DNA of 64,000 nucleotides. It comes from Armatimonadota bacterium. Lineage in GTDB: Bacteria; Armatimonadota; HRBIN16. Of this stretch, positions 4,209 through 50,586 are shown in pieces. The stretch spans positions 598,763 through 662,762 of the forward strand of contig BPGU01000003.1 of the NCBI GenBank assembly GCA_026003195.1, written 5' to 3'. The position numbers and the translations under genes are program-made. How positions within the stretch are numbered: position 1 is the stretch's first letter; each line of letters begins with the position of its first letter. A model generated the notes under the pieces. The model did no database searches, was not told where the DNA came from, and was given only the letters and a program-made list of their open reading frames with translations.

Positions 4209-5369
4209 CTACCAGGACACCCCGATTACCTGTCCTGTCGGGTCTACGTCCATGCGCTTGGCAGCCGGTTCAACGGGCAAGCCCGGCATGGTCATCATAT
4301 CTCCGCACAGCACGCGCACAAAACCCGCTCCTGCAGCCAGCTGTACTTCCGAAACAGGCAGAGCGAATCCACTCGGAGCCCCTTTCAAACCGGGGTCGTG
4401 AGAAAGGGAAAACTGCGTCTTGGCGAAGCAGATGGGCAGGTGACGGAACCCCCATTTCTCAAACTGCTTCAGCTGCGAGCGCACTCCAGACTCGTAACGC
4501 ACTTCATCTGCGCCATATATCTGCGTGGCAACGGCTTCGATTTTCTGGGATAGCGAGGCATCGGCGCCATACAGCGGCTGAAAATGGCTGGTGTGTCCAT
4601 TACACACTTCACGCACCGCCTCCGCCAGCGCTATACCGCCCTCCGCACCACGCGCAAAGCATTCCGACACCGCTGCGCCCTCCGCTCCTGCAGCAATCGC
4701 CAGGTTGCGCAGCAGCTCTATCTCCGCCTCCGTATCGCTCGGGAAGCGATTCACAGCAACTACCACCGGAACACCCCATCGATGCACAATGCGGATATGC
4801 GCCTGCAGATTCGCCGCGCCCTTTTCCAGCGCGTCCAGGTCCTCTTGCTCCAGCTCTGGCGGTAAAGGTTTGCCGGAGACCACTTTGAACTTCCCGCTGT
4901 GCACTTTCAAACCGCGTACTGTGGCAACCAGCACCGCCGCGTCAGGCGATTTGCCCAGCACAGGCGACACAATGTGGCAGAACTTCTCAAAGCCCAAATC
5001 GGAGCCGAACCCCGCCTCTGTCACCGTATAGTCCGATGTGTATAAGGCTATCTGGTCAGCCAATACTGAATTGCACCCAGTGGCTGTATTGCCAAAAGGA
5101 CCGGTGTGTACCAGCAGGGGAGTGCCTTCCAGCGTTTGCACCAGGTTAGGCATCAGAGCATCTTTCAAAAGCAGGGTCATCGCGCCAGCTGCGCCAATGG
5201 CTTCTGCGGTAATGGGTTCTCCGCTCTGCGTGATACCCACCACGACCTGTCCCAAACGACGGCGCAGGTCGCCAAGGTCCGTGCTAAGTGATAGCACCGC
5301 CATAATCTCCGAAGCTGCGGTGATCTCAAAGCTCGTCTCGCGCGGTACCCCCATTGGATTTGCCACCAA
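4209..5369 (-). CDS. fhs: Formate-tetrahydrofolate ligase, C-terminal two thirds (frameshifted gene)
   Basis: This frame carries most of Fhs, which makes 10-formyl-tetrahydrofolate from formate, ATP and THF in one-carbon metabolism. Recognisable family blocks include VPRETSFEITAASE, HTGPFGN and VAVNRFPSDT. The apparent start (TTG at 5369) is not real: the true N-terminus is the neighbouring frame, and the join is at NG|VPRET. A run of five C on the plus strand (5348-5352) should hold four to keep the frame. Together the two halves make about 560 residues, the normal Fhs length. Whether the shift is biological or an assembly error cannot be decided from the sequence. Confidence 0.9.
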   Translation of the reverse strand: MVANPMGVPRETSFEITAASEIMAVLSLSTDLGDLRRRLGQVVVGITQSGEPITAEAIGAAGAMTLLLKDALMPNLVQTLEGTPLLVHTGPFGNTATGCNSVLADQIALYTSDYTVTEAGFGSDLGFEKFCHIVSPVLGKSPDAAVLVATVRGLKVHSGKFKVVSGKPLPPELEQEDLDALEKGAANLQAHIRIVHRWGVPVVVAVNRFPSDTEAEIELLRNLAIAAGAEGAAVSECFARGAEGGIALAEAVREVCNGHTSHFQPLYGADASLSQKIEAVATQIYGADEVRYESGVRSQLKQFEKWGFRHLPICFAKTQFSLSHDPGLKGAPSGFALPVSEVQLAAGAGFVRVLCGDMMTMPGLPVEPAAKRMDVDPTGQVIGVSW

Positions 5370-5877
5370 GACCGGTAATCACCTGACGCAAGGAGCGGTC
5401 TGGCACGTCCAGTACACGATTCCACCACACCCCATGCGCATCGAACCCTGCCGCGTTGCCGTGGTGAATATGCGCATCGACCATTGCTGCCAGCAGATTG
5501 TGTGCTGCAGTGACCGCGTGGATGTCACCCGTGAAGTGCAGGTTGATATCGTCCGCCGGGTATGCCTGGGCACGTCCTCCGCCAGCACCCCCTCCCTTCA
5601 CCCCGAAAACCGGTCCTAATGAGGGTTCACGGATACATACGGCGACTCGCTCGCCAATGTGGCGCAGAGCATCGCCCAGTCCCAGTGTGGTCACGGTTTT
5701 GCCCTCGCCAGCCGGAGTGGGGGTAATGGCGGTGACGACAATGAGCTTGCCCTGTGGACAAGATGCCAACCGTTCCAGCACACCCAGACGAATCTTCGCT
5801 TTGTACTCTCCGTAAGGTATCAGCTCCTCATCGAGCAAGCCCAGCAACTTCGCCACATCGCGAATGGGTGATGGCAT
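5326..5877 (-). CDS. fhs: Formate-tetrahydrofolate ligase, N-terminal third (frameshifted gene)
   Basis: The N-terminal part of Fhs holds the ATP-binding P-loop (TPTPAGEGKT), GPVFGVKGGGAGGG and the tract DINLHFTGDIHAVTAAHNLL typical of the family. AGGAGG lies just upstream of the ATG at 5877. After GLGGKSNG the frame runs into the artefactual tail GTARDEL because of one extra base in a five-C run; the correct continuation VPRET is one frame over. Fhs is single-copy and often important for purine synthesis, so an intact gene is expected in the living cell. Confidence 0.9.
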   Translation of the reverse strand: MPSPIRDVAKLLGLLDEELIPYGEYKAKIRLGVLERLASCPQGKLIVVTAITPTPAGEGKTVTTLGLGDALRHIGERVAVCIREPSLGPVFGVKGGGAGGGRAQAYPADDINLHFTGDIHAVTAAHNLLAAMVDAHIHHGNAAGFDAHGVWWNRVLDVPDRSLRQVITGLGGKSNGGTARDEL

Positions 5878-5936
5878 AGGAACCTCCTGTTTGCAGCGGA
5901 TGCATTCTGGAACTTCAACGTACTACGAGCGGTTTC

Positions 5937-6314
5937 CTACTCCGGAGGGGTGTGCAGGTCGGCAGAGGGCGTTGGCATCGGGAAGCTGAGGCTATTGTAC
6001 CCTGCGCCACAGCATTCCGGACAAAACAGAAGGAGAAATCGCCCGGGACGCTCCGGATGGGGCATGCGGACCACCCCGGGCAAAGTGTGGTCTACGGGAG
6101 TTTGCAACAGTACCAGAGGAATATGCGGGTGCAGGGCACAGAAGTACTGTACCTCCACGGGCTGCTGCTCCCGTGAGGTGCGTCGACGATACAGCGTTTT
6201 GGTGCGCCAGCGTTGTCCGCTGGGAAGCAGGTACACCTGATGGATGCGTATCCAGCGGAATACCTGCCGACGCAGTTCCCGCCTCGAAGCCGGTTCCTCG
6301 GGATGTTCTCTCAT
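5937..6314 (-). CDS. Small Cys- and Arg-rich protein of unknown function
   Basis: I do not recognise the family. The 125-residue product is basic at its N-terminus (ASRRELRRQVFRWIRIHQ) and carries FCPECCG near residue 100, which could be half of a zinc or metal site. The ATG at 6314 is chosen because GGGAGGAG lies close upstream; an in-frame start further out has no such signal. There is no signal peptide or membrane segment. It is divergent from dnaK, and its start lies about 80 bases from the HspR operator. Nothing ties it to the chaperone operon beyond position. Confidence 0.5.
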   Translation of the reverse strand: MREHPEEPASRRELRRQVFRWIRIHQVYLLPSGQRWRTKTLYRRRTSREQQPVEVQYFCALHPHIPLVLLQTPVDHTLPGVVRMPHPERPGRFLLLFCPECCGAGYNSLSFPMPTPSADLHTPPE

Positions 6315-6394
6315 GGTCTCCTCCCGATAACAGATTTTCGGCAGATGCAAGCCTTGCCTTGAGGAAAAATTCTTCAAAAATTTCCATCAAATCA

Positions 6395-6415
6395 CTTGAC
6401 AACAATACACTCAAG
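6395..6415 (+). promoter_or_regulatory. HAIR operator for HspR
   Basis: CTTGACA-N7-ACTCAAG closely matches the HspR-associated inverted repeat CTTGAGT-N7-ACTCAAG: the right half is perfect and the left half matches 5 of 7. The left half contains the -35 hexamer, so bound HspR would occlude RNA polymerase. The last gene of the operon encodes HspR, giving a feedback loop. Confidence 0.85.
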
Positions 6416-6424
6416 TGGTATAAT
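6396..6424 (+). promoter_or_regulatory. Sigma70-type promoter of dnaK operon
   Basis: TTGACA and TATAAT, both perfect consensus, are separated by 17 bases. The predicted transcript starts near 6431, about 57 bases before the dnaK ATG. The -35 box overlaps the HAIR operator, so a strong promoter is kept in check by repression. Confidence 0.88.
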
Positions 6425-6487
6425 AATGCACGGAAAAAGCGAGAGAGAACATCCTGAAAGAAGCACTCATCAGAGCGGAGGACAGAT

Positions 6488-8317
6488 ATGGCAAAGACAG
6501 TAGGAATTGACCTGGGCACAACCAACTCGGTGGTGGCGGTCATGGAAGGCGGCGAGCCGGTCGTGATTCCCAACGCCGAAGGGAGCCGCCTTACGCCGTC
6601 GGTGGTGGCGTTCACCAAGACCGGCGAACGGCTAGTGGGTGCCGCCGCCAAACGACAGGCGATTATCAACCCAGACCGCACCATTGTGTCTATCAAACGC
6701 AAGATGGGTACGCGCGAGCGCATCCGCATTGACGATAAGGAATACACGCCGGAAGAAATCTCGGCGATGATTCTGCAGAAACTGAAGGCGGATGCCGAGG
6801 CGTACCTGGGCGAGAAGGTAGAGGCTGCGGTAATCACCGTGCCGGCTTACTTCAATGACGCGCAGCGCACCGCGACCAAAAACGCAGGCGAAATCGCCGG
6901 ACTGAAGGTGCTGCGCATCATCAACGAACCGACAGCCGCAGCACTCGCTTACGGGCTGGACAAGAAGTCCAACGAGACCATCCTGGTGTTTGACCTGGGT
7001 GGCGGTACGTTTGACGTGTCCATTCTGGAGGTGGGCGATGGCGTGTTCGAAGTGAAAGCCACCTCGGGCGATACGCACCTGGGTGGCGACGACTTCGACA
7101 TGCGCATCGTCAACTGGGCGGCGGATGAGTTCAAGAAGGAGACGGGTATCGACCTGCGCAAGGACCCGCAGGCGTTGCAGCGACTGCGTGAAGCGGCGGA
7201 GAAGGCAAAGATCGAGCTCTCCAGCATGGTGGAGACCGAGATTAACCTGCCCTTCATCACCGCCGACGCCGAGGGTCCGAAGCACCTGCTGTACAAGCTC
7301 ACCCGCGCGAAGTTCGAGGAGCTCACCGCCGACCTGGTGGAGCGCCTGAAGGGCCCGTTCTATCAGGCGCTGTCGGACGCCAAGCTGGATGTGAAGGACA
7401 TCGACGAGATAATCCTCGTCGGTGGCGCCACGCGCATGCCCTGCGTGCAGGAGCTGGTGCGCAAGCTCGCCGGCAAGGAGCCGAACAAAGGCGTCAACCC
7501 CGATGAGGTGGTCGCTATCGGCGCAGCCATTCAGGCGGGCGTGCTCGGCGGCGAGGTGAAGGACGTGGTGTTGCTGGATGTGACGCCGCTGTCGCTCGGT
7601 ATTGAGACACTGGGCGGCGTGTTCACCAAGCTGATCGAGCGCAACACCACCATCCCGACGCGCAAGAGCGAAATCTTCACCACCGCTGCCGACGGGCAGA
7701 CCGAAGTGGAGATCCACGTGCTGCAGGGCGAGCGCGAGATGGCGCGCGACAACAAGACGCTGGGGCGGTTCCATCTGACCGGTATTCCGCCTGCGCCACG
7801 TGGGGTGCCCAAGATTGAGGTCACCTTCGACATCGACGCCAACGGCATCCTGCACGTGTCCGCGAAGGACTTGGGCACCGGCAAGCAGCAGGCGATTACC
7901 ATCACCGGCTCCAGCAACCTGACGCGCGAGGAGATTGACCGCATGGTGAAAGAAGCGCAGGCGCACGCAGAAGAAGACCGCCGACGCCGCGAGGAAGCCG
8001 AAGTGCGCAACCAGGCAGACTCGCTGGCATACCAGACCGAACGCATGTTGCGCGACCTCGGCGACCGCGTGCCGTCCGACGAGAAACTGCGCATCGAGCA
8101 GGCAATCTCCGACCTGCGCGACGCCATCAACAAGAACGACATCAGCCTCATCCGGCAGCGGATGGAAGCGTTGCAGCAGGAGTCGTACCAGCTGTCGCAG
8201 AGGCTGTACGAACAGGCGTCGCAGACTTACGCCGGAACCGGCGCACAGACCGGTGGCAGTAGCTCCGGCTCATCCGGCGACGGCGAGGTCATCGACGCCG
8301 AATTCAAGTCCGAGTAA
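6488..8317 (+). CDS. dnaK: Hsp70 chaperone DnaK
   Basis: A 609-residue Hsp70. The ATPase domain opens with GIDLGTTNS, contains [17 protein letters not shown] and the second phosphate loop [11 protein letters not shown], and is joined by [18 protein letters not shown] to the substrate-binding domain and helical lid. The C-terminus is a Gly/Ser-rich tail ending near GEVIDAEF, typical of bacterial DnaK. GGAGGACAGAT precedes the ATG. It works with DnaJ and normally GrpE in ATP-driven folding; dnaJ is nearby but grpE is not in this cluster. Confidence 0.98.
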
Positions 8318-8326
8318 CGGCAAAAG

Positions 8327-8350
8327 CTGCCCGCGGTTGCCCGCGGGCAG
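8327..8350. other. GC-rich hairpin between dnaK and hsp20
   Basis: CTGCCCGCGG and CCGCGGGCAG pair perfectly around a TTGC loop. No T-run follows, so it is more likely an RNA processing or stability element, setting the dnaK to hsp20 mRNA ratio, than a terminator. Confidence 0.6.
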
Positions 8351-8396
8351 ACCAAATAGCACCAAAAAACTTCAACGACGAAGGAGGTGACCGACG

Positions 8397-8852
8397 ATGG
8401 CATTGGTGCGCTGGGAGGATCCTGTGGACATGCTGAATCGCTTTGAGCGGGAGATGAGCCAGCTGATGAACCAGTTCTTCGGCAACGCGGTCGCGCGCCG
8501 CACCGAGCCGACGCTGCCTCGCGTGTGGGCGCCCGCTGTGGACGTGCGTGAGGACGACAACGAAATCACCATCCATATGGAACTGCCCGGCGTGAAGCCC
8601 GAGGAGGTGGAGATCGAGCTGACGGGCGACACGCTGTGCGTGAAGGGCGAGCGCAAGTTCCAGGACGAGGAGCGCCGCAAGGACTACGTGCGCATCGAGC
8701 GGGCGTACGGTACGTTCCAGCGCTCGTTCACGCTCGGCACACCCATCGATGCCGAGAAAGTGACGGCGCACTATAGGGACGGCGTATTGACCATCACCCT
8801 GCCCAAAGCGGAGCAGGTGCGTCCGAAGAAGGTGCAGGTGAAGGCTGGGTAA
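8397..8852 (+). CDS. Small heat-shock protein Hsp20
   Basis: A 151-residue alpha-crystallin-type holdase that binds unfolding proteins without ATP. The crystallin domain spans roughly residues 40-135 (PAVDVREDDNEITIHMELPG, GVLTITLPKAE), and the variable N-terminus has the usual DMLNRFEREM helix. The C-terminal I/V-x-I/V tail is only loosely kept (VQVKAG). AAGGAGGTGA lies just before the ATG. In many HspR operons grpE occupies this position; here hsp20 does. Confidence 0.95.
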   Translation: MALVRWEDPVDMLNRFEREMSQLMNQFFGNAVARRTEPTLPRVWAPAVDVREDDNEITIHMELPGVKPEEVEIELTGDTLCVKGERKFQDEERRKDYVRIERAYGTFQRSFTLGTPIDAEKVTAHYRDGVLTITLPKAEQVRPKKVQVKAG

Positions 8853-8879
8853 TCCCCGCCCTCACCGCTGAAAGCAGGA

Positions 8880-8914
8880 GGGGCAGGGCGGTAACGGGCT
8901 GCCCTGCCCCTTTT
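8880..8914 (+). terminator. Terminator-like hairpin between hsp20 and dnaJ
   Basis: GGGGCAGGGC and GCCCTGCCCC form a perfect 10-bp stem with an 11-base loop, followed by TTTT. The short T-run suggests partial termination, which would lower dnaJ-hspR expression relative to dnaK-hsp20. Confidence 0.6.
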
Positions 8915-8946
8915 GATAAACCCTTCGTCAAGGTGGCGAGGCAACG

Positions 8947-9981
8947 ATGAACTTCAAATACAAGGACTACTATGCCATACTCGGTGTGCCGCGCAACGCC
9001 ACCGAAAAGGAGATTAAGCAGGCGTATCGCCGACTGGCTCGGAAATACCACCCGGACGTGAACCCGGGCGATAAGAGCGCAGAGGAGAAGTTTAAGGAGA
9101 TCAGCGAGGCGTACGAAGTGCTCTCCGACCCGGAGAAGCGGGCGAAGTACGACCAGTACGGCGAGATGTGGAAATACTACAGCGAGCAGCAGCAACAGCC
9201 TGGCGGTTTCTCCGGCGGTGGCGGATGGCAGGACCTGCGCGATTTCGGTTTCGGAGGACTGGGCGACCTGTTCGCCACGCTGTTTGGTGACGCCTTTGGA
9301 CGTGGGCGCACCGCCGAGACCGATTTCGGCTCCATCTTCGATGCCTCGCTGGACGTCGAATATCCGATAGAGGTATCGCTGGAAGAAGCGTACAACGGCG
9401 CAACGCGCACGCTTTCGGTAACGCTGCAGGATGCCTGTTCACAATGCGGTGGTACCGGAGCATCGCGCACGCGCAGCGGCTTTTACACGCTGGGGCAGGT
9501 GTGTTCGAACTGCCATGGAAGAGGCACCGTTCCACGCAGTAAGCGACTGGAGGTGCGCATTCCTGCCGGCGTGCAGGACGGCTCGAAGATTCGCCTCGCT
9601 GGCGAAGGGCTGACCGGACGTGGCGGGCAACGCGGCGACCTGTACCTGATTGTGCGCATGCGTGCACATCCTGTTTTTGAACGCAAAGGTGACGACCTGT
9701 ACGTAGATGTGGATGTGCCCTATACCACCGCCGCTCTGGGAGGCGAAGTGCGCGTGCCCACTCTCAAGGGCAGCGTGACCATGAAAGTGCCCGCTGGCAC
9801 GCAAAGCGGTCAGGTATTCCGTTTGGTGGGGCAGGGGATGCCCCGTTTGAAAGGCGGCGGCTACGGCGACCTGTACGCCCGAGTGCGCATTACCGTGCCG
9901 CGCACGCTGACCGCTCGCGAACGAGAACTGTTGCAGCAGCTGGCACAGCTGCACGGCACTACAACAACTACTCGTGTCTGA
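8947..9981 (+). CDS. dnaJ: DnaJ-family co-chaperone with reduced zinc-binding region
   Basis: A 344-residue Hsp40. The J domain (residues 6-70) has the HPD motif (KYHPDVNPG) that triggers DnaK ATP hydrolysis. A Gly/Phe-rich linker follows (FSGGGG...GFGGLGDLF). Classical DnaJ has four CxxCxGxG repeats; here only two are present, CSQCGGTG and CSNCHGRG, about 20 residues apart, so at most one zinc site can form. The two beta-barrel substrate-binding domains follow, with [18 protein letters not shown] and [17 protein letters not shown]. It lies upstream of hspR in the same operon. It could equally be called a CbpA-like DnaJ. Confidence 0.93.
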
Positions 9982-10004
9982 GCAACGTCAGGGGGGATGT
10001 GAAA

Positions 10005-10382
10005 ATGGCGGATAACATTCGCGATAAGCACGAACCGGTGTATCTGATCAGTGTGGCGGCGAGGTTGTGCGATATGCACCCGCAGACGCTGCGCATGTAC
10101 GAGCGCATGGGCTTGATACGCCCCAAACGCATTAACCGCAAAAACCGTCTGTACTCCGAGGCGGACATCGAAAGGCTGCGCCAGATTCAACGACTGACCC
10201 GTGACCTGGGCGTGAATCTGGCAGGGGTGGAGATTATTCTCGATCTGCTGGACAAGGTCGAAAAGCTGCAACAGGAGCTGGAAACGCTTCAGGCGCAGAT
10301 GGAACAGATGGTGCAGGAGCGGGTAGAGCAGGCTCTTGCCGAGCGACAGACCCTTCCGGCGCGGGTGCTGCGCGAACTGTAA
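10005..10382 (+). CDS. hspR: HspR, MerR-family heat-shock repressor
   Basis: A 125-residue MerR-type regulator. The winged helix-turn-helix reads [20 protein letters not shown] followed by MGLIRPKR, the hallmark of HspR, and a C-terminal coiled coil ([20 protein letters not shown]) dimerises it. HspR represses chaperone operons at HAIR sites, usually with DnaK as co-repressor, and releases on heat shock. A matching HAIR lies at the dnaK promoter. The ATG at 10005 is preferred over the GTG two codons earlier because GGGGGG lies 8 bases before it. Confidence 0.93.
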
Positions 10383-42946: not shown

Positions 42947-43197
42947 CCTCCCGGGCGAGCAACCGTTCTACGGGAAATCCTGCCGAATGCGAAAATCCTC
43001 GCGGAAACACTCTGCGGTTTCTCCTTCACTCTTTTGGATGCACAAGCGCAGGGGAATGTTTCAGTTTTCTCGAAGGAATTTGAAGCAGGGCAGAGCGAAC
43101 GCAGATGCACTGCGCGAAGCACAAGCCACAGAATGCAACAGCTCCTTCGGCTGTCAATCAGCAATAAAAGAGGTCAAAAACCGGAACATCGACGGGG
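42947..43197. other. Non-coding stretch before VWA-tubulin operon
   Basis: I see no supported gene. Several short open frames exist on both strands but none has a ribosome site or recognisable product. The stretch leads into the perfect promoter at 43198. Confidence 0.4.
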
Positions 43198-43226
43198 TTG
43201 ACAATTGCTCAGGTGTCAGATATAAT
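43198..43226 (+). promoter_or_regulatory. Perfect sigma70-type promoter of VWA-tubulin-stator operon
   Basis: TTGACA and TATAAT, both exact consensus, are spaced by exactly 17 bases. The transcript should start near 43233, leaving a 65-base leader with AAGGAGG before the first gene. No operator palindrome is obvious, so the operon may be constitutively strong. Confidence 0.88.
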
Positions 43227-43299
43227 TGCAGCAAATAGACGCAAACGCCGTGCCGTGTTGTCGCCGATGACAGAATCAAGCAAATAAGGAGGATCAGAG

Positions 43300-44616
43300 T
43301 TGCGTCTATTACTGCTTGTATTATTGCTCGCGTTCGCTACGTCCGTACTGGTAGCGCAAAGCACCCGCCAGGACAGGTTGGACGATGCCAGTATCAAACA
43401 GGCTGCTCGTACCCTCCAGGACGCTATCCGCTCGGCAGTATCTCAGGCAGGGGGAGATTTGGAGCGTCAGCACATTCACCTCGTGCTCGCCTTCAGTACG
43501 GGGCACTTTAACAAGGACCCCTTAGGTGCGCAAGCGGCTCGGCAGATTGCATGGCTGCTGGCCAGGGATTTACTTGTGGAAGGAGACAGGGTCTCCTGCT
43601 TCGCCTGGGAAATGAGCCTCTGGGACCACCTGCAGGGCAAAGAGGCAACGATGATAGTGCCCGGCAGTTCCCCAGAGCAAAAGCAACCCATCAACGACCT
43701 CTTCCCGACGACCGTGCAGGACGGCAGTCAAGGTGGGCACGATACGGAGAGAGCCATTGTCGAGATTACTCAGCGCCTGGGTGACGCGCGCGATGCAGTC
43801 ATTGTGCTCTTAACCAACGATGCGCAGAGCGTGGCGCCGAAAGGACAACAGACGCTCGGAGCAGATAACCCGACGTATCAGCAGGTGCTGCAAACGTGGC
43901 AGCGATTACCGCAGGTAAGCGAAAGCGGGGCATCACTGGTGTTACCTTTCAAGGTAATCAAGGTCGACGGCAGCACAGCCAATAGAAAGCTGGACGTTGT
44001 GATGGTAGCGCCTCAGACCTTCGCGTCGGCAGCACTGACAGGTAAACCGCGTTCAGAGCAGGTGCGTGAGCGTGTTACCTCGAGACCTCCCTCACCACCC
44101 CACGCAAAGCCGCTACAAGTTTTGCTCATGACCTTACCTTGGGTTGTGCTTGTTGCAGCACTCATCGTAATCGGCACGCTCATTGCGCGTAAACTGCTCC
44201 TGAAACAACCGAGCGCCCATGTAATGAAGATACAAGACGAACGAATTGATATTAGCCAAGTCACAGACGGAGATCCCATCTGCATTCTTGCAGGAGAAAG
44301 CTACAAGCCTACGTCGCAGGAAACGACCCCAGTGATTAAGGTAGCGAAAGGTTCAGACGCTGTACTGGCAGAGCTTTTCCGCCAGGGGAACAGGATAGAA
44401 TTGCAGCCACGAGAAGCAGAGTTACGGAAAATCGACGACGAGCGGGTTCAACAGGGATGTAGTGCTTACCCCTTAAAGATGGGGGAGCCGCACGTTCTGA
44501 GTTTCGTCCTACGTAAACCACCTAAACCGACTATGCCTGCTCGTACACAGGAAGTTGATGTACGCATCGACTGGGTGTTCACAGATCCCGGTAAATCACA
44601 GCATGAGGGAGGTTAA
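43300..44616 (+). CDS. Membrane-anchored VWA-like protein
   Basis: A 438-residue protein starting at TTG with AAGGAGG 7 bases upstream. A signal peptide (RLLLLVLLLAFATSVLVA) exports a VWA-like domain, residues about 55-240: HIHLVLAFSTGHF (first strand), SQGGHDTERAIVEI (motif with T149) and DAVIVLLTND (D174). The first MIDAS Asp is replaced by Ala/Phe, so metal binding may be lost or altered. A membrane helix (residues 274-297, LLMTLPWVVLVAALIVIG) is followed by a 140-residue cytosolic domain of unknown fold. It is two bases from the tubulin gene. Likely role is sensing or linking outside to the cytosolic tubulin-like partner. Confidence 0.82.
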   Translation: MRLLLLVLLLAFATSVLVAQSTRQDRLDDASIKQAARTLQDAIRSAVSQAGGDLERQHIHLVLAFSTGHFNKDPLGAQAARQIAWLLARDLLVEGDRVSCFAWEMSLWDHLQGKEATMIVPGSSPEQKQPINDLFPTTVQDGSQGGHDTERAIVEITQRLGDARDAVIVLLTNDAQSVAPKGQQTLGADNPTYQQVLQTWQRLPQVSESGASLVLPFKVIKVDGSTANRKLDVVMVAPQTFASAALTGKPRSEQVRERVTSRPPSPPHAKPLQVLLMTLPWVVLVAALIVIGTLIARKLLLKQPSAHVMKIQDERIDISQVTDGDPICILAGESYKPTSQETTPVIKVAKGSDAVLAELFRQGNRIELQPREAELRKIDDERVQQGCSAYPLKMGEPHVLSFVLRKPPKPTMPARTQEVDVRIDWVFTDPGKSQHEGG

Positions 44617-44618
44617 CC

Positions 44619-47600
44619 ATGCAAGTTACCAAAACGCTGGTCATTGGTCTGGGAAGTACGGGTACAGAAATCTGCGAAGCGATAGCGCGGCGCATTCAAT
44701 GGGAGTTAGGCAGTATTAGCCGCGCCCCATGGATTCAGTTTCTATGCATAGAGACTGATGGCAATAACCGTCCCGACGTTATTGCCTATGAAGACTTCAT
44801 TCCTCTTACGATTTCTGCCGAAGAGTACCAAATGCTGTTGAACAAACCTGACGCCTACGATGAGAAAATACGGTTTACTGAATGGGCGGAAATAGAGACT
44901 CTAAAAAATCTTCACGACGGCCATGTAACAGCAGGTGCAGGAAACATCCGAATGGTGGGGCGACTGGCTTTTTTCTTCCCCTCAAACTACGATAGGATAC
45001 ATAGCGCCCTCATTCTGCGTCTTAACCGGCTTCGCCAGCTGACTGTAGCAGACGTGCAAGAGAAACACGGTACGATGCCTGATGGGCAGATGCCGCAAAT
45101 TCAGTTTGCCAACAATGGCAACTTGGTGATATACGTCGTTGGCACGTTGTGTGGGGGCACCTGTAGTGGTCTTGCCTCTGACTTCGGGTTTTTCCTGAAC
45201 CGAGATACACAACCTAGCGAGCATAAGATTGGCATCTTCACGCTCCCTCACCGTAGCTTGACATCCACGACACAGAAAAGTGCTGAGCGGTTCAAACGCA
45301 ATGCGTACGCAGCCCTCGTCGAGTTGAACCAGTATCACCTGACCGATAGAGCAGACCGCAAGACCATCCGGTTCCCGGATGGCAGGGAGTCCTCACCTTC
45401 CGAGGCACCCTATAGTCTGCTCTTTATTGCCGCACCAAGACATGTAGGAAGCGAGCACAACCAGCAGCTCAACACAGCAATAGCAGATTACATCTTTCTC
45501 AACGCATTTGTCCCTTCCACGCTACCACTTGCGGATGCTATTAATGCTCCACCGATATTAGATAGAGGTAATCAAGCTCACGTCTTCTGCACTTTTGGTC
45601 TGTCAACCCTGGAGTTTCCTGCACAGCGCGTGATCGAAGCGTGTACATATCGGCTTAGTGCGTACGCTCTAGGGCAGTGGTGCCACCGAAGCGTCGAAGA
45701 AAACACCATTGAGGAGTGGCTTGACAACATAGGGCTTACTTGGGAACGGCTGAAGGATCTACTTTTCAGGGTCAACGATAAGGACGTCCGTGAAGAAGCA
45801 ACAAAGCAACCACTGGATGAGGCAATGAGAAAGGTCTGGCGTAGAACGAACGATGCTCGCCAGATAATCAACAATTCGCTCCGCCCTTTGTTCCAGCAAT
45901 CTGATGTCGCCGACGAGCTCAGTCTGCACAGTCCCGGCAGCTTGTACCAGGTAGCTATGAGAAATCGGCAGGCCGTTGCCAACCAGATAGTGAACAACAT
46001 CAGGAACCGAATCAACAGCCTCATGGCAGACTACCGGCGCGGTCCTGCGGTTGCGCTGCAGTTCCTGACAGCAATAGAACGCAGGCTAGACGAACTGAAC
46101 GAACAAGCTTCCGCGATCGGAGAACTGCCCAAGGAGGTAGATTCGACACTCCGCGATCTCGAACGATATCGCAGTAGATGGTTTAACAAGTTCCTTGGTA
46201 GAAGTAGAGTCAAAATCCTTATTGGACACCTCTATAACGCCCTACAAGACGAATTGCATGCCCGGGAGGATGGGGTTGTTGCACAGGTGTTATTGGACAG
46301 GACCAACGAAAATGGAGTCACCGAGGCTGGTGTTATCAGCCGGATTCGCAAAGAGACCAAACTTTTCCGAAACCGCACGATGAACCTTCGCGACAGATTG
46401 ATTACCCTCCAGAACAGGATGAACCATCAATCTAACGAACTGTCTCGAAATGAACCCAATATCAATGGAGTGCTCCTCTTCGATCCAGAAGTAGGTGAAC
46501 AGGGCACAGTCCCGGAGGAATTCAGCCGATGTCTCGAACTGGATGCGGTGGCAACCGGAGTTTCTTGGCAGGAACATCGGGAAAAAATTGCCTCTGAAAT
46601 TGTATCGGGCGTGTTATCGCGGTTGTCTGGTCGTGTTACCCTGCCGTCTACAGTACCTCGTGAGCAGGACTGGCTGAGTCAACCATTGGATACAAGTAAG
46701 CCACTGACTACCTTGCTTCCGGAAGACATTTTTGCAGAGATGCAGGAAAGGGCACGTGCACCCTTCTTGCGGCTGCGCAATGAGAACGTACTCGAGCGGT
46801 GGATGAACACACATGGCTTAAAAAGCCCCGAAGTGATGGCTCAGCAAGCTGCTGAAAAGGCAACGAGCTTTCTTGACCTCAACGAGACACACGCGACGTT
46901 TGGTGGGCGTTCACCAATTTTGCGGAACCGCTTGCTACTGGTTCCCGAATCAAGCCACAAACAAAAATTCGAGAGTATTGCCCGGAATCACTTCGCGAAT
47001 CCGCATGTGGACACCTCACCAGATAGCTGGCGCGTGGTGTTCGTGCAAAATCAGTTCCGGTTCCCACTACGAGGGGTGCTGAGTGTGGTCGGAGCAGATG
47101 GCATCTCACGAGCACATTGTGACGACTTTCCAACTTTCTTCACACGCAAAGACGTTGCATGGGTCGGCGTGACAGATGAGGAAGATAAGCGCGTTCGCAA
47201 GGCGGAAGAGATCCTAACAATTGCTACGCTCCTAGAAATCGTTCGTCCCGAAGGAGGAGCACTGGTTTTTGACCTGAGGACGGGTCCTGGTGACCCGGGA
47301 ATACGGAGGCTACCCTTGAGCTTCCGACATGCGGCAATGGCTCTTGCGCGCGGCGAGATAGATACGGAAGGCTATGGCTTACACCAAGCTCTGGAGATTC
47401 TTGAAGCACGCATTCAGACGAAGCGTGATGGGTTGAAAACCGAAGGAGGAGACGTTCGATTTGTCCAACACATCGATGAGCAGCTGCAAAGGCAGGTAGG
47501 CGGCGTGGTACCTGATTGGAACCGGAACTGGCTAGCTGAGCGGTTTAGCCGATATTGTGCCGCTGACGACGAACTGCTGAAAGCATACGACCAGGTATTT

Positions 47601-47822
47601 CCTCCAGACCGAGACATGATCAAACAGATGACATTCAAGAAGGGTGACCGACGCCCCGGTCAAGCAGGTATCTGCGAACAGGACGGTATCTACTGCACAA
47701 AGTGCGGGGGCTGGATTGGCAAAGACGAACAAGAGGCTGCACAAAACGGATGGCGTTGCTTTGTCAATCCGCAAAATCATTACTTCGGCTTCGGAGCTAT
47801 CATCGCAGGAGGCCAACAGTGA
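44619..47822 (+). CDS. Tubulin/FtsZ-like GTPase (Tubulin_2 type) with C-terminal zinc ribbon
   Basis: A 1067-residue protein. The nucleotide-binding fold starts TKTLVIGLGSTGTEICEAI (glycine-rich loop at 10-15), and GTLCGGTCSGLASDFGFFL (175-193) takes the place of the tubulin signature GGGTGSG, as in the Tubulin_2 (PF13809) group. A long helical middle (roughly 350-650) follows, then a C-terminal domain ending in a zinc ribbon with C1019, C1026, C1029 and C1047 (YCTKCGGWIG). Known tubulin-like proteins polymerise with GTP; polymerisation here is inferred. It lies two bases after the VWA gene and overlaps the next gene by 4 bases. Codon use and lower GC set it apart from the flanks. Confidence 0.82.
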   Translation: MQVTKTLVIGLGSTGTEICEAIARRIQWELGSISRAPWIQFLCIETDGNNRPDVIAYEDFIPLTISAEEYQMLLNKPDAYDEKIRFTEWAEIETLKNLHDGHVTAGAGNIRMVGRLAFFFPSNYDRIHSALILRLNRLRQLTVADVQEKHGTMPDGQMPQIQFANNGNLVIYVVGTLCGGTCSGLASDFGFFLNRDTQPSEHKIGIFTLPHRSLTSTTQKSAERFKRNAYAALVELNQYHLTDRADRKTIRFPDGRESSPSEAPYSLLFIAAPRHVGSEHNQQLNTAIADYIFLNAFVPSTLPLADAINAPPILDRGNQAHVFCTFGLSTLEFPAQRVIEACTYRLSAYALGQWCHRSVEENTIEEWLDNIGLTWERLKDLLFRVNDKDVREEATKQPLDEAMRKVWRRTNDARQIINNSLRPLFQQSDVADELSLHSPGSLYQVAMRNRQAVANQIVNNIRNRINSLMADYRRGPAVALQFLTAIERRLDELNEQASAIGELPKEVDSTLRDLERYRSRWFNKFLGRSRVKILIGHLYNALQDELHAREDGVVAQVLLDRTNENGVTEAGVISRIRKETKLFRNRTMNLRDRLITLQNRMNHQSNELSRNEPNINGVLLFDPEVGEQGTVPEEFSRCLELDAVATGVSWQEHREKIASEIVSGVLSRLSGRVTLPSTVPREQDWLSQPLDTSKPLTTLLPEDIFAEMQERARAPFLRLRNENVLERWMNTHGLKSPEVMAQQAAEKATSFLDLNETHATFGGRSPILRNRLLLVPESSHKQKFESIARNHFANPHVDTSPDSWRVVFVQNQFRFPLRGVLSVVGADGISRAHCDDFPTFFTRKDVAWVGVTDEEDKRVRKAEEILTIATLLEIVRPEGGALVFDLRTGPGDPGIRRLPLSFRHAAMALARGEIDTEGYGLHQALEILEARIQTKRDGLKTEGGDVRFVQHIDEQLQRQVGGVVPDWNRNWLAERFSRYCAADDELLKAYDQVFPPDRDMIKQMTFKKGDRRPGQAGICEQDGIYCTKCGGWIGKDEQEAAQNGWRCFVNPQNHYFGFGAIIAGGQQ

Positions 47823-49585
47823 ATCCCACATATTTGTTCCCAGCGCACCCATTGGGTAAAGTGATCGTGCTGGCAATAATTGCCTACAGCGCGTATATCC
47901 TGTTGCGACTGTATCTACTACTGTCCTTTTGGAGGTCCCATAATCATAGAGCCTCCGCCCCTGAAGGACGAGACGGTTATATTGCGCGTGCTCAGCAAAC
48001 CTTAAGCCGAATAAGCAACCTGGAGTATGCAGACTGGAGAGCGGTACTATTCATCCTGCGCGAAAAGGAATTAGCAAAGCTGAACTTTGCACGTCCCGCC
48101 CCAAATATTCTTCTGCTAATGGGTTTACTGGGAACTGTTCTGGGTCTAGCCGAGACTGTAGGTTCTCTTGTAAAGCCTCTCAGTAATGCACTCAACAATG
48201 CCAGCCCACAAGACGTTTTCAACCTTCTGAGCTTTACGCTGCAACAGATGGGTACGGCATTTTCCTGTACCCTGTGGGGAATACTTGCTGCGCTAATCGT
48301 TGGCTGGATATTGCGCTCCGTCACGGGAAAACTGCAATCCCTTTTGTCTGAATGGGATACCTATATTATTCAGAGTGTTATCCCTGATGTCCTACCCGAA
48401 AGCCAATCCGCTCAGATCCAGAGTTTACAGGAACTTATCAACAAGAGCCAGGAGATCGTTGCAGAAAGCCGGAGGTTTCTCGAGAGAATCGGTCCTGTCA
48501 TGCAAGAAGCAGCGGAACAGTTCAAGGGGGTCCTGACCACTGCAGGAGAGGCAATGCAACAAAGCGTTGAGAAGTTGACCCAAACTGCGCAAGAGATGCA
48601 AGAGAAACTTCAGTATGTGGCACAGGGGGTTGCTCAGAGCGCGTCTGCATTGGAGAGTAGTAGCAGAGATCTTCGCGAAAGCACCGCTGAACTAGCCCAG
48701 TACCATACCGATTTGCGTAACGCGCATCAAGAACTTCTCACCGTGTTTGAGCAGGCTCGAAGCGACCTTGAACATCAGATTAAGGGACAGTTAGAGAAGA
48801 TTGGTGCGCTGGATGAAAACTTCCGAAGGAATGCTCAAGATATCGTGGCGAGGATAAATGATGCTGGTAGGCAGTTCGGGGAGGCTACCCAAGCCTTTCG
48901 TCAAGCTGGGGACCTCTTTACCAACGAAGGAGTACAGATACACTCCCAAATTGCACACTACCACCAGTGTCTCACGGAATATGTGGAAAACCTTCTTAAG
49001 GACCACCGTTTCGCGATAGATGAGGTGGAGAAATCAGTTGCTGCGATACGAGACTCCCTCCACACCATCAAGGAATCTCCTGTATGGCAATCAAGAAACG
49101 GAAGTGATAGTGGCTGGGACAAGGTGCATGAGGTATTAACCGAGATACAACAAGTGATGGGTGAACTGAGAGAGCGACCAGTGCCACGAATGCAAGAGAT
49201 GACGGAAGCAGTAGTTCACACGCCGCGTTCGGCACCTTCGGTAGATGGTAAAGTAATAGCGGAACGTCCCTTCGTCAGCTCGGCAACTGCGACAACAGCC
49301 ATCTTAGACCAACAAGAGATCACCAAGCTGATAGAGGCGATACAAAACCTATCTAGCACCATCAGCGAATTTGGAGGCAGTGCCAGCCGCGACGAACGAC
49401 CAGTGCAAGCCGTATCGGACATCCAAGCGTTGGTTCAGAGCATTCAGTCTCTTCGCGACATAACAGCGGACCTGCACAGCGTAATGCTGGAACTCAGCGT
49501 ATCACTGAAGAGATCGCAGGTCCAACCGTCCAAGCGAAAAAGCTGGTTCTCATGGTTAATTCCTTGGAGGAAAGGGAAACGATGA
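47819..49585 (+). CDS. MotA/TolQ/ExbB-like membrane protein with long coiled coil (ZorA-like)
   Basis: A 588-residue protein; the GTG at 47819 overlaps the tubulin stop and gives MNPTYLFPAHPLGKV. Three membrane helices are visible: about 14-38, 96-117 (NILLLMGLLGTVLGLAETVG) and 145-167 (GTAFSCTLWGILAALIVGWI), the last two matching the MotA/TolQ/ExbB channel core. Residues about 185-470 are heptad-rich coiled coil in the cytoplasm, and the extreme end KRKSWFSWLIPWRKGKR is aromatic and basic, as in membrane-touching tails. The layout equals ZorA of the Zorya defence system: stator core plus long tail. The next gene supplies the MotB/ZorB partner. Confidence 0.82.
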   Translation: MNPTYLFPAHPLGKVIVLAIIAYSAYILLRLYLLLSFWRSHNHRASAPEGRDGYIARAQQTLSRISNLEYADWRAVLFILREKELAKLNFARPAPNILLLMGLLGTVLGLAETVGSLVKPLSNALNNASPQDVFNLLSFTLQQMGTAFSCTLWGILAALIVGWILRSVTGKLQSLLSEWDTYIIQSVIPDVLPESQSAQIQSLQELINKSQEIVAESRRFLERIGPVMQEAAEQFKGVLTTAGEAMQQSVEKLTQTAQEMQEKLQYVAQGVAQSASALESSSRDLRESTAELAQYHTDLRNAHQELLTVFEQARSDLEHQIKGQLEKIGALDENFRRNAQDIVARINDAGRQFGEATQAFRQAGDLFTNEGVQIHSQIAHYHQCLTEYVENLLKDHRFAIDEVEKSVAAIRDSLHTIKESPVWQSRNGSDSGWDKVHEVLTEIQQVMGELRERPVPRMQEMTEAVVHTPRSAPSVDGKVIAERPFVSSATATTAILDQQEITKLIEAIQNLSSTISEFGGSASRDERPVQAVSDIQALVQSIQSLRDITADLHSVMLELSVSLKRSQVQPSKRKSWFSWLIPWRKGKR

Positions 49586-50202
49586 ATGAGTACCCCATAA
49601 ATACAGAAGACTCCCTGAACCCCTATATTGCTTTCAGCGATGTAGGCATTAATCTCGTACTCATCCTTGTTTTCTTCATGGCTGCCGTTCTGAGTGTTGG
49701 CAGGGCTGGATGGGGAGGTATCGGCTGCACAGATTCTGAAAAAGGGGTTTACGAGGCGGTTCTCTCCGAAATGGATCCCGCATCTCGTCCTAAACACATA
49801 GATCGCAACTATCGCAACGACCCGACCTGCGTCCAGCGCTGGCACTTTGCAGGAAAGGCTCTCTTCTATCCAAACAGTGTTCAGATAACACCCGAAGGCT
49901 ATCATAGCGTTGCCAAATTTGCCGAAATCCTGGGGCGATATCGTAACCATTGGCGACGTATCCGCATTGAAGGACATACTATCCCTCCTGTTTCTGGTCA
50001 AGCGGACGATTGGGAATTATCTGCCCAAAGAGCTGCGGTAGTAGCACGCATCTTCCATAGTAGAGGCAAGATACCTGCATACTATTTAGCCGTATCCGGC
50101 CGCGCTGGGCAAGCACCATGGAACACTAAAGACAGAACCAGCCCGCAAAATGAGCGCGTCGAGATTGTTGTCGAGTTTGTGCCAAAGGTCTCTCTGAAAT
50201 GA
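49582..50202 (+). CDS. MotB/OmpA-like peptidoglycan-binding partner (ZorB-like)
   Basis: A 206-residue protein starting at ATG 49582, which overlaps the stator gene stop (ATGA). Its single membrane helix reads FSDVGINLVLILVFFMAAVL; D20 at the start of the helix is where MotB and ZorB carry the proton-binding Asp. The periplasmic C-terminal domain is OmpA-like: IRIEGHTIPP, WELSAQRAAVVARIF, YYLAVSGRAG and QNERVEIVVEF, which would bind peptidoglycan. With the preceding protein it should form an ion-driven A5B2-type stator. It ends the operon. Confidence 0.85.
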   Translation: MNEYPINTEDSLNPYIAFSDVGINLVLILVFFMAAVLSVGRAGWGGIGCTDSEKGVYEAVLSEMDPASRPKHIDRNYRNDPTCVQRWHFAGKALFYPNSVQITPEGYHSVAKFAEILGRYRNHWRRIRIEGHTIPPVSGQADDWELSAQRAAVVARIFHSRGKIPAYYLAVSGRAGQAPWNTKDRTSPQNERVEIVVEFVPKVSLK

Positions 50203-50586
50203 AAGAAAAAGTTGAGAGGAGAGACAAAATCACCCCTTTTGTCTTGTGTGCACGGTATCCATCGCATGGAGTGCTTCGTGGCAACGGGTCCTCAAGAAAC
50301 AACCCATTCCCGTAAGGTCCAAGTGGCAGAGGGGCAACGAAGCCTATGCCCTGCTATGGCGTTGCGAAAAACCTGCTCTTCAAGGATGGAAGCTTATTGA
50401 GAAAGACCTCCCGGTGGTGGATGGGTTCACTCTCGGTGTTCCGTATGGCGACGAAGTTCTCGTCGTTCCCAATGTGTTCGGCAGAGTGTGCGTGGGTAGA
50501 GCTGAGACTCCTTAAAATCCCCCAAACAGGAACTTTCCCTCCCTGTCGCCAAACTGTACTTCAAACATCTCATCAGGAGAGCGAAT
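50203..50586. other. Gap after stator operon with a doubtful small ORF
   Basis: A GTG-started frame at 50246-50515 (89 residues, ending GRVCVGRAETP) has no good ribosome site and no recognisable family; it could be a small gene or a remnant. No clear terminator was found for the operon. The base composition moves back toward that of the flanks here, so this may be the right edge of the island. Confidence 0.3.

What the first reader, a model, noticed from the sequence alone, without database searches (positions are those of the whole stretch)
43198..50202. Four-gene operon joining a VWA protein, a tubulin-like GTPase and a MotAB/ZorAB-type stator
A perfect promoter drives four genes that touch or overlap (gaps of 2, -4 and -4 bases): exported VWA-like protein with a cytosolic tail, 1067-residue Tubulin_2-like protein, MotA/TolQ-type channel with a ~280-residue coiled coil, and MotB/OmpA-type partner. 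Such coupling implies one machine: an ion-driven motor anchored to peptidoglycan, linked through its coiled coil to a cytosolic GTP-dependent polymer and sensed or organised by the VWA protein. I recall a bioinformatic prediction of a membrane-remodelling system pairing FtsZ-like families with VWA and OmpA proteins, so the theme may not be wholly new; the combination with a ZorA-like channel seems not to be characterised experimentally.
Basis: partly seen in the sequence, partly recalled or inferred. Interest (0 to 1): 0.92.

Follow-up and report, generated by a model that had tools for sequence, protein, structure and literature searches.

The report
Mobile motor–tubulin–VWA gene cassette
Four overlapping genes encode what looks like one membrane machine, an ion-driven motor of the type used in Zorya anti-phage defence joined to a tubulin-like GTPase and a VWA-fold membrane protein, and in this bacterium the whole set has recently replaced a different tubulin cassette at the same chromosomal site.

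Summary
In detail: a perfect sigma-70 promoter and four genes with junctions of +2, -4 and -4 bases. The second protein is Tubulin_2/FtsZl1 (PF13809, E 3e-54). Its AlphaFold model matches FtsZ and CetZ across both tubulin domains (Z 22-26), with a roughly 400-residue helical insertion. The third is a 3-TM channel protein; the family profile hits solved ZorA best (E 1.7e-8), well ahead of MotA or TolQ. The fourth is MotB/ZorB-like, with an invariant transmembrane Asp. The first has a VWA fold but a broken MIDAS. The same four components recur together in Armatimonadota, four Deinococcus plasmids, a cyanobacterium and Poribacteria. New here: the operon is an exchangeable cassette. Sister genomes carry an unrelated Tubulin_2 cassette between the same flanking genes; DNA homology breaks at about 43,080 and 50,330, and the last ~60 codons of the replaced gene remain as a scar. 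A third congener carries the cassette elsewhere. Makarova & Koonin (2010) already predicted FtsZl1+VWA+OmpA systems; the ZorA-like motor and the cassette exchange are additions. Function is untested. I favour an accessory, probably immune/conflict machine over housekeeping, at about even odds. A survey of neighbours found no general defence enrichment; brxL adjoins only the Thermales variants.

The parts
43080..43090 (.). left border of the exchanged cassette (approximate)
   Evidence: DNA homology to congeners L032, L033, L036, L038 (84-88%) stops at 43068-43086; alignment
43198..43226 (+). consensus sigma-70 promoter TTGACA-17-TATAAT
   Evidence: 12/12 match
43300..44616 (+). VWA-fold membrane protein: exported VWA domain with degenerate MIDAS, TM about 271-300, cytosolic beta-sandwich (weakly FHA-like)
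   Evidence: AF2 pLDDT 84; all 50 best VIA rows are VWA-type folds, best 6pyo Z 10.0; homologues in motor operons
44619..47822 (+). Tubulin_2 / FtsZl1 GTPase, 1067 aa, with ~400-residue helical insertion and C-terminal Cys motifs
   Evidence: PF13809 E 3.2e-54; AF2 pLDDT 80; CetZ/FtsZ Z 22-26 over 271-320 residues
47819..49585 (+). ZorA/MotA/TolQ-type channel subunit, 3 TM plus long cytosolic helical tail; invariant GxxGT motif (T106)
   Evidence: profile to ZorA structures E 1.7e-8; alignments A6/A10
49582..50202 (+). MotB/ZorB-type partner: one TM with invariant Asp (D20 from ATG 49582, D30 from 49552) plus OmpA-like domain
   Evidence: PF00691 E 1.1e-13; Asp invariant in 8/8 aligned and present in D. 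deserti
50327..50515 (+). scar: last ~60 codons and stop of the replaced X700 gene, marking the right border
   Evidence: 65.6% aa identity over 61 residues to L038 X700, E 2e-21; DNA homology resumes at 50329-50348

Best explanation
A horizontally exchanged four-gene cassette encoding one envelope-spanning machine. The MotA-like and OmpA proteins form a ZorAB-type ion-driven membrane motor, by analogy 5:2. Its long cytosolic tail reaches the tubulin-like GTPase, whose assembly state or position is controlled by, or acts on, the motor. The VWA-fold protein links periplasm and cytosol and acts as sensor or adaptor. Most likely the system is accessory, of the immune/conflict type: a periplasmic or envelope disturbance trips the VWA protein and motor, which remodels or releases the tubulin assembly. 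Shown: gene unit, folds, channel signature, recurrence across phyla, cassette replacement. Inferred: complex formation, ion flow, polymerisation, immune role.
For: Four-part sets, mostly colinear, in Armatimonadota (L064, L066, L068, L172, L069/L170; L055 and L174 with more divergent parts), four Deinococcus plasmids and Gloeocapsopsis; in Poribacteria in another order. ZorA is the best PDB match of the channel profile; the partner's TM Asp is invariant. Tubulin fold. VWA fold. Exchange at a fixed locus with a scar; the cassette lies at another site in a congener. Other Tubulin_2 cassettes with a vWA gene precede brxL in three Thermales genera, in one of them near HmaC. Tubulin+vWA systems were earlier predicted to be conflict systems (Kaur 2020, PMC7159879).
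Against: No nuclease, helicase or other known effector in the window operon. Of 101 neighbouring proteins scanned, almost only BrxL (Thermales) recurs among PADLOC matches. Flanks in the window are metabolic genes. No ZorC-G homologue recognised in the window operon. The motor is absent beside most Tubulin_2 genes (15 of 103 rows have it), so the tubulin can work without it.
Confidence: 0.48

Rival explanations
1. A housekeeping envelope or membrane-remodelling machine, as Makarova and Koonin proposed for FtsZl1: the motor tethered to the wall pulls or positions a tubulin-family scaffold, with no immune role.
For: FtsZl1+VWA+OmpA context and the membrane-remodelling proposal (PMC2875224); OmpA-type and membrane-anchored parts; metabolic neighbours and no broad defence enrichment.
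Against: Patchy presence, replacement by an unrelated tubulin cassette at the same site, a third location in a congener, plasmid carriage, and a broken cassette in G005 are unusual for a housekeeping machine.
Confidence: 0.33
2. A true Zorya variant: ZorA and ZorB with the tubulin and VWA proteins in place of ZorC/D or ZorE as effector and sensor.
For: ZorA is the nearest solved relative; ZorB structures match including the TM segment; NCBIfam ZorA_4 and PADLOC ZorA/ZorB hits.
Against: All Zorya family hits are far below curated cut-offs (39 bits against 500); no ZorC-G recognised in the window operon; a tubulin GTPase is not a nuclease.
Confidence: 0.12
3. Two independent modules (VWA-tubulin and a MotAB-like channel) that travel together without physical coupling.
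For: The motor label changes at least 8 times on the tubulin tree, and a few close channel-partner pairs have no tubulin gene in the contig stretch seen (L173, L177).
Against: Overlapping genes and the same order in distant lineages; in the window's own tubulin clade every member with sequence downstream has the motor.
Confidence: 0.07

Closest known systems
FtsZl1 / Tubulin_2 (PF13809) multi-gene systems, Makarova & Koonin 2010 (PMC2875224)
   Same: same tubulin family; VWA and OmpA genes in the operon; membrane association; kinase in the Deinococcus operon
   Different: that paper's main text names no MotA/TolQ/ExbB partner and found no C-terminal tubulin domain; here a ZorA-like channel is present and the model contains both tubulin domains with an insertion; no GTPase or kinase gene in the window operon
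Zorya defence motor ZorAB
   Same: 3-TM channel with long cytosolic tail, MotB-like partner with TM Asp and OmpA domain; nearest solved relative
   Different: far below family cut-offs; no ZorC/D/E/F/G recognised; tubulin and VWA instead; no phage data
GTPase-centric and vWA conflict systems, Kaur et al. 2020 (PMC7159879)
   Same: tubulin plus vWA membrane proteins, predicted multimeric effectors
   Different: no DO-GTPase, GAP1 or MoxR recognised in the window operon; an ion-channel motor instead
MotAB / TolQR / ExbBD stators
   Same: channel core motif and Asp-bearing partner
   Different: channel profile only weakly matches MotA/TolQ/ExbB (E 0.19 or worse); not next to flagellar, Tol or Ton genes

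Membership tests
FtsZl1 / Tubulin_2 (PF13809) | PF13809 match above gathering score over the full model | tested here: met
   185 bits against 27, model positions 1-353 of 356
FtsZl1 / Tubulin_2 (PF13809) | tubulin fold with GTP-binding loop | tested here: met
   GTLCGGTCSG loop; CGG invariant in 16 sequences; CetZ/FtsZ Z 22-26
FtsZl1 multi-gene system | VWA and OmpA genes in the operon | tested here: met
   VWA fold by AF2/VIA; PF00691
FtsZl1 multi-gene system | accompanying P-loop GTPase or Ser/Thr kinase | tested here: not met
   none among the window operon proteins or the neighbours scanned; kinase present in D. deserti. Frequent, not obligatory, in the published description
VWA domain | fold | tested here: met
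   139 residues to 6pyo, Z 10.0, rmsd 3.5
VWA domain | intact MIDAS (DxSxS, Thr, Asp) | tested here: not met
   AFSTG, GGHDT and LTND at the expected places; intact-looking DxSxS in relatives L055, L079, L044
Zorya | ZorA family score above cut-off | tested here: not met
   NCBIfam ZorA_4 39.2 bits against 500
Zorya | ZorA-type membrane core by profile | tested here: met
   8qyh_A E 1.7e-8, profile 2-200 to ZorA 5-212
Zorya | ZorB-like partner with TM Asp and OmpA domain | tested here: met
   8vvn_B E 3e-16 from profile position 20; invariant Asp
Zorya | ZorC/D, ZorE or ZorF/G effector gene in the operon | tested here: not met
   no PADLOC match for the other two operon proteins except a weak LmuB score
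Zorya | anti-phage activity | not testable with these tools
   needs experiment
OmpA-like peptidoglycan binding | conserved Asp of the GHTD motif | tested here: not met
   GHTI in the window, GHTM in L066, GHTQ in D. deserti; GHTD in Poribacteria and L069
Kaur et al. GTPase-centric conflict system | DO-GTPase plus GAP1 | tested here: inconclusive
   no GTPase or GAP1 recognised in the operon by Pfam/NCBIfam, but no dedicated GAP1 profile was searched

The most novel reading that the evidence does not exclude
An ion-driven rotary motor mechanically coupled to a bacterial tubulin-family polymer, working as an exchangeable immune cassette with a VWA membrane sensor: a motor-cytoskeleton coupling not described in the papers searched here.
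Probability: 0.27. Interest if true: 0.92.

Novelty: new variant of a known kind. Interest (0 to 1): 0.72.

Why it matters
In the searches made here, Tubulin_2 proteins appeared without experimental characterisation, and ZorAB-type motors without a cytoskeletal partner. A defined four-gene set, present also in cultured Deinococcus strains, makes both questions testable: what ZorA-like tails push on, and what these tubulins do. The cassette exchange at one locus is evidence that such systems are accessory and swapped, as conflict systems are.

Tried and rejected
Protein-only genome-contig scan found no relative; the alignment query worked. PDB sequence search with the VWA profile gave nothing and with the tubulin profile only coiled coils. 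X700 against tubulin: hhalign E 0.004 but probability 8%, not claimed. X700 against the Thermales 680-aa protein: no detectable homology, so the replaced cassette cannot be equated with the BREX-linked one. I first took the exported protein of the replaced cassette for a VWA protein; it shows no VWA signature and reads as a beta-rich exported domain. Foldseek on the whole VWA model gave no hit under 0.001; the VIA second look resolved it. FHA resemblance of the C-terminal domain is weak (Foldseek E 0.04-0.07) and I saw no canonical FHA residues. Only two structure jobs were allowed, so the channel protein and all complexes were not modelled. The 2026 BREX survey (PMC12839542) does not mention tubulin; the 2025 MotAB phylogeny (PMC12505986) excludes ZorAB and mentions no tubulin.
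Full report
Observation. The four genes and the promoter are as described. TTGACA-17-TATAAT lies at 43198-43226 with 12/12 matches. Genes run 43300-44616, 44619-47822, 47819-49585 and 49582-50202 with junctions +2, -4 and -4. The genome (4.58 Mb) holds one Tubulin_2 gene and two other MotA/ExbB-type genes elsewhere.

Tubulin-like protein. PF13809 matches at E 3.2e-54 over nearly the whole model. The AlphaFold2 model (16 sequences, pLDDT 80, pTM 0.63) matches CetZ (Z 24-26, 303-320 residues) and FtsZ (Z 21-23, about 270 residues) with model ranges from residue 3 to about 815. FtsZ chains align over nearly their whole length, so the C-terminal tubulin domain appears to be present, completed by residues about 765-815 after an insertion of roughly 400 mostly helical residues. 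Makarova and Koonin (2010) had found no counterpart of that domain in FtsZl1. This is a prediction; per-residue superposition was not available.

Channel pair. Pfam MotA_ExbB is marginal on the protein (E 6.6e-4, 19.9 bits against 22.9). A profile of eight homologous membrane regions finds ZorA structures first (8qyh_A E 1.7e-8, aligned 2-200 to 5-212), then 8vvn and 8vvi (E 9e-4 and 5e-3), and MotA/TolQ only at E 0.19 or worse. G102, G105 and T106 in the GxxGT motif are invariant in all eight. From general knowledge, the Thr corresponds to the channel Thr of ExbB and TolQ. The partner protein has one TM helix with an Asp invariant in 8/8 sequences and present in D. deserti, followed by an OmpA-like domain. 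Its profile matches MotB and ZorB structures, ZorB including the TM region.

VWA protein. No sequence profile recognises it, but the AF2 model (pLDDT 84) aligns to VWA-type domains in all 50 best VIA rows, best 6pyo Z 10.0. The MIDAS is degenerate: AFSTG for DxSxS, GGHDT, LTND. Proteins at this position in more distant motor operons keep DxSxS-like motifs (L055 DISGS, L079 DVSGS). The topology suggests an exported VWA domain, a TM helix and a cytosolic beta domain with a weak FHA-like match.

Conservation. Profiles of the four proteins find the set in L066 (same genus), L068, L172 and L069/L170 (Armatimonadota; the VWA gene of L069 is cut by the contig end), with more divergent parts in L055 and L174, in Gloeocapsopsis crepidinum L120 (its tubulin frame is broken once) and, in another order, in three Poribacteria. 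Four Deinococcus plasmids (D. deserti, D. actinosclerus, QL22, D. radiophilus) carry VWA, a 108-aa membrane protein, tubulin (about 33% identity over nearly the full length), channel, OmpA, a repeat protein and, as annotated in D. deserti, a kinase/SH3/beta-helix protein. On a tree of 103 tubulin domains the window sits in a 10-row clade (SH-aLRT 87): eight rows have the motor and the other two contigs end before it. Elsewhere the motor is scattered (at least 8 changes on the tree; clustered against shuffles, 0 of 500), so it has been gained or lost repeatedly. The tree is a quick build with long branches.

Cassette exchange. In same-genus genomes G002, G003, G005 and G009 the same flanking genes (GH20, GH4, a 287-aa gene; TIM barrel and GNAT genes where held; 75-98% identity) enclose a different cassette: an exported beta-rich protein, a Tubulin_2 from another major clade, and a 700-aa membrane protein (X700). 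DNA homology to the window stops at 43068-43086 and resumes at 50329-50348. There the window keeps the last ~60 codons and stop of X700 (65.6% identity, E 2e-21) as a scar after the OmpA gene. About 7.2 kb was thus replaced. In G006 (SKYG83, tubulin 81% identical) the cassette lies beside genes whose window orthologue is on another contig. In G005 the alternative cassette is broken into pieces. A misassembly is unlikely because both borders continue into congener-like sequence.

Function. Replacement, movement and plasmid carriage fit an accessory system. Three Thermales plasmids have vWA-Tubulin_2-680 aa followed by brxL, in Meiothermus also near HmaC (PADLOC E 0) and PDC-S01. Kaur et al. predicted tubulin+vWA systems to be conflict systems. 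Against this, 101 neighbours of Tubulin_2 loci show little beyond BrxL among PADLOC families, without a control set, and the window flanks are metabolic. I therefore put an immune/conflict machine somewhat ahead of a housekeeping envelope machine. Physical coupling of motor and tubulin rests on gene context only.

Known or new. The FtsZl1+VWA+OmpA theme is published. The ZorA-like channel as a recurrent partner is absent from that paper's main text and from the other papers searched here; supplements could not be read and subscription papers are mostly not held. It is a new variant of a known kind.

Noticed in passing
L168, L163, L169 (Meiothermus, Thermus, Allomeiothermus plasmids): vWA - Tubulin_2 - 680-aa protein followed by brxL (an IS element lies between in Allomeiothermus), in defence-rich surroundings (HmaC, PDC-S01, RecQ-type helicase, exonuclease): a possible BREX-linked tubulin module.
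   Followed up: partly
L036 (G005), 4868-10045: The alternative tubulin cassette of this congener is broken: tubulin in two frames and X700 in three ORFs, so cassettes also decay at this locus.
   Followed up: partly
window 49979-50010; L066; L158: The Asp of the OmpA GHTD motif is replaced by I, M or Q in the window clade and in Deinococcus, whose wall has ornithine instead of diaminopimelate (from general knowledge); possible match of binding site to wall chemistry.
   Followed up: no
L161 9504-10476: An IS630 element interrupts the tubulin gene of D. radiophilus pRadio2.
   Followed up: no
L076 9992-19103: Successive Tubulin_2 ORFs (757, 288, 1055 and 728 aa) downstream of one VWA gene in a MAG contig (RUG13580).
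   Followed up: no
L120 9959-13230: Gloeocapsopsis crepidinum tubulin reading frame is broken once; mutation or sequencing error.
   Followed up: no
L173 4903-7559; L177 8361-10647: ZorAB-like pairs in Armatimonadota without Tubulin_2 or a recognised Zorya effector among the neighbours scanned.
   Followed up: no
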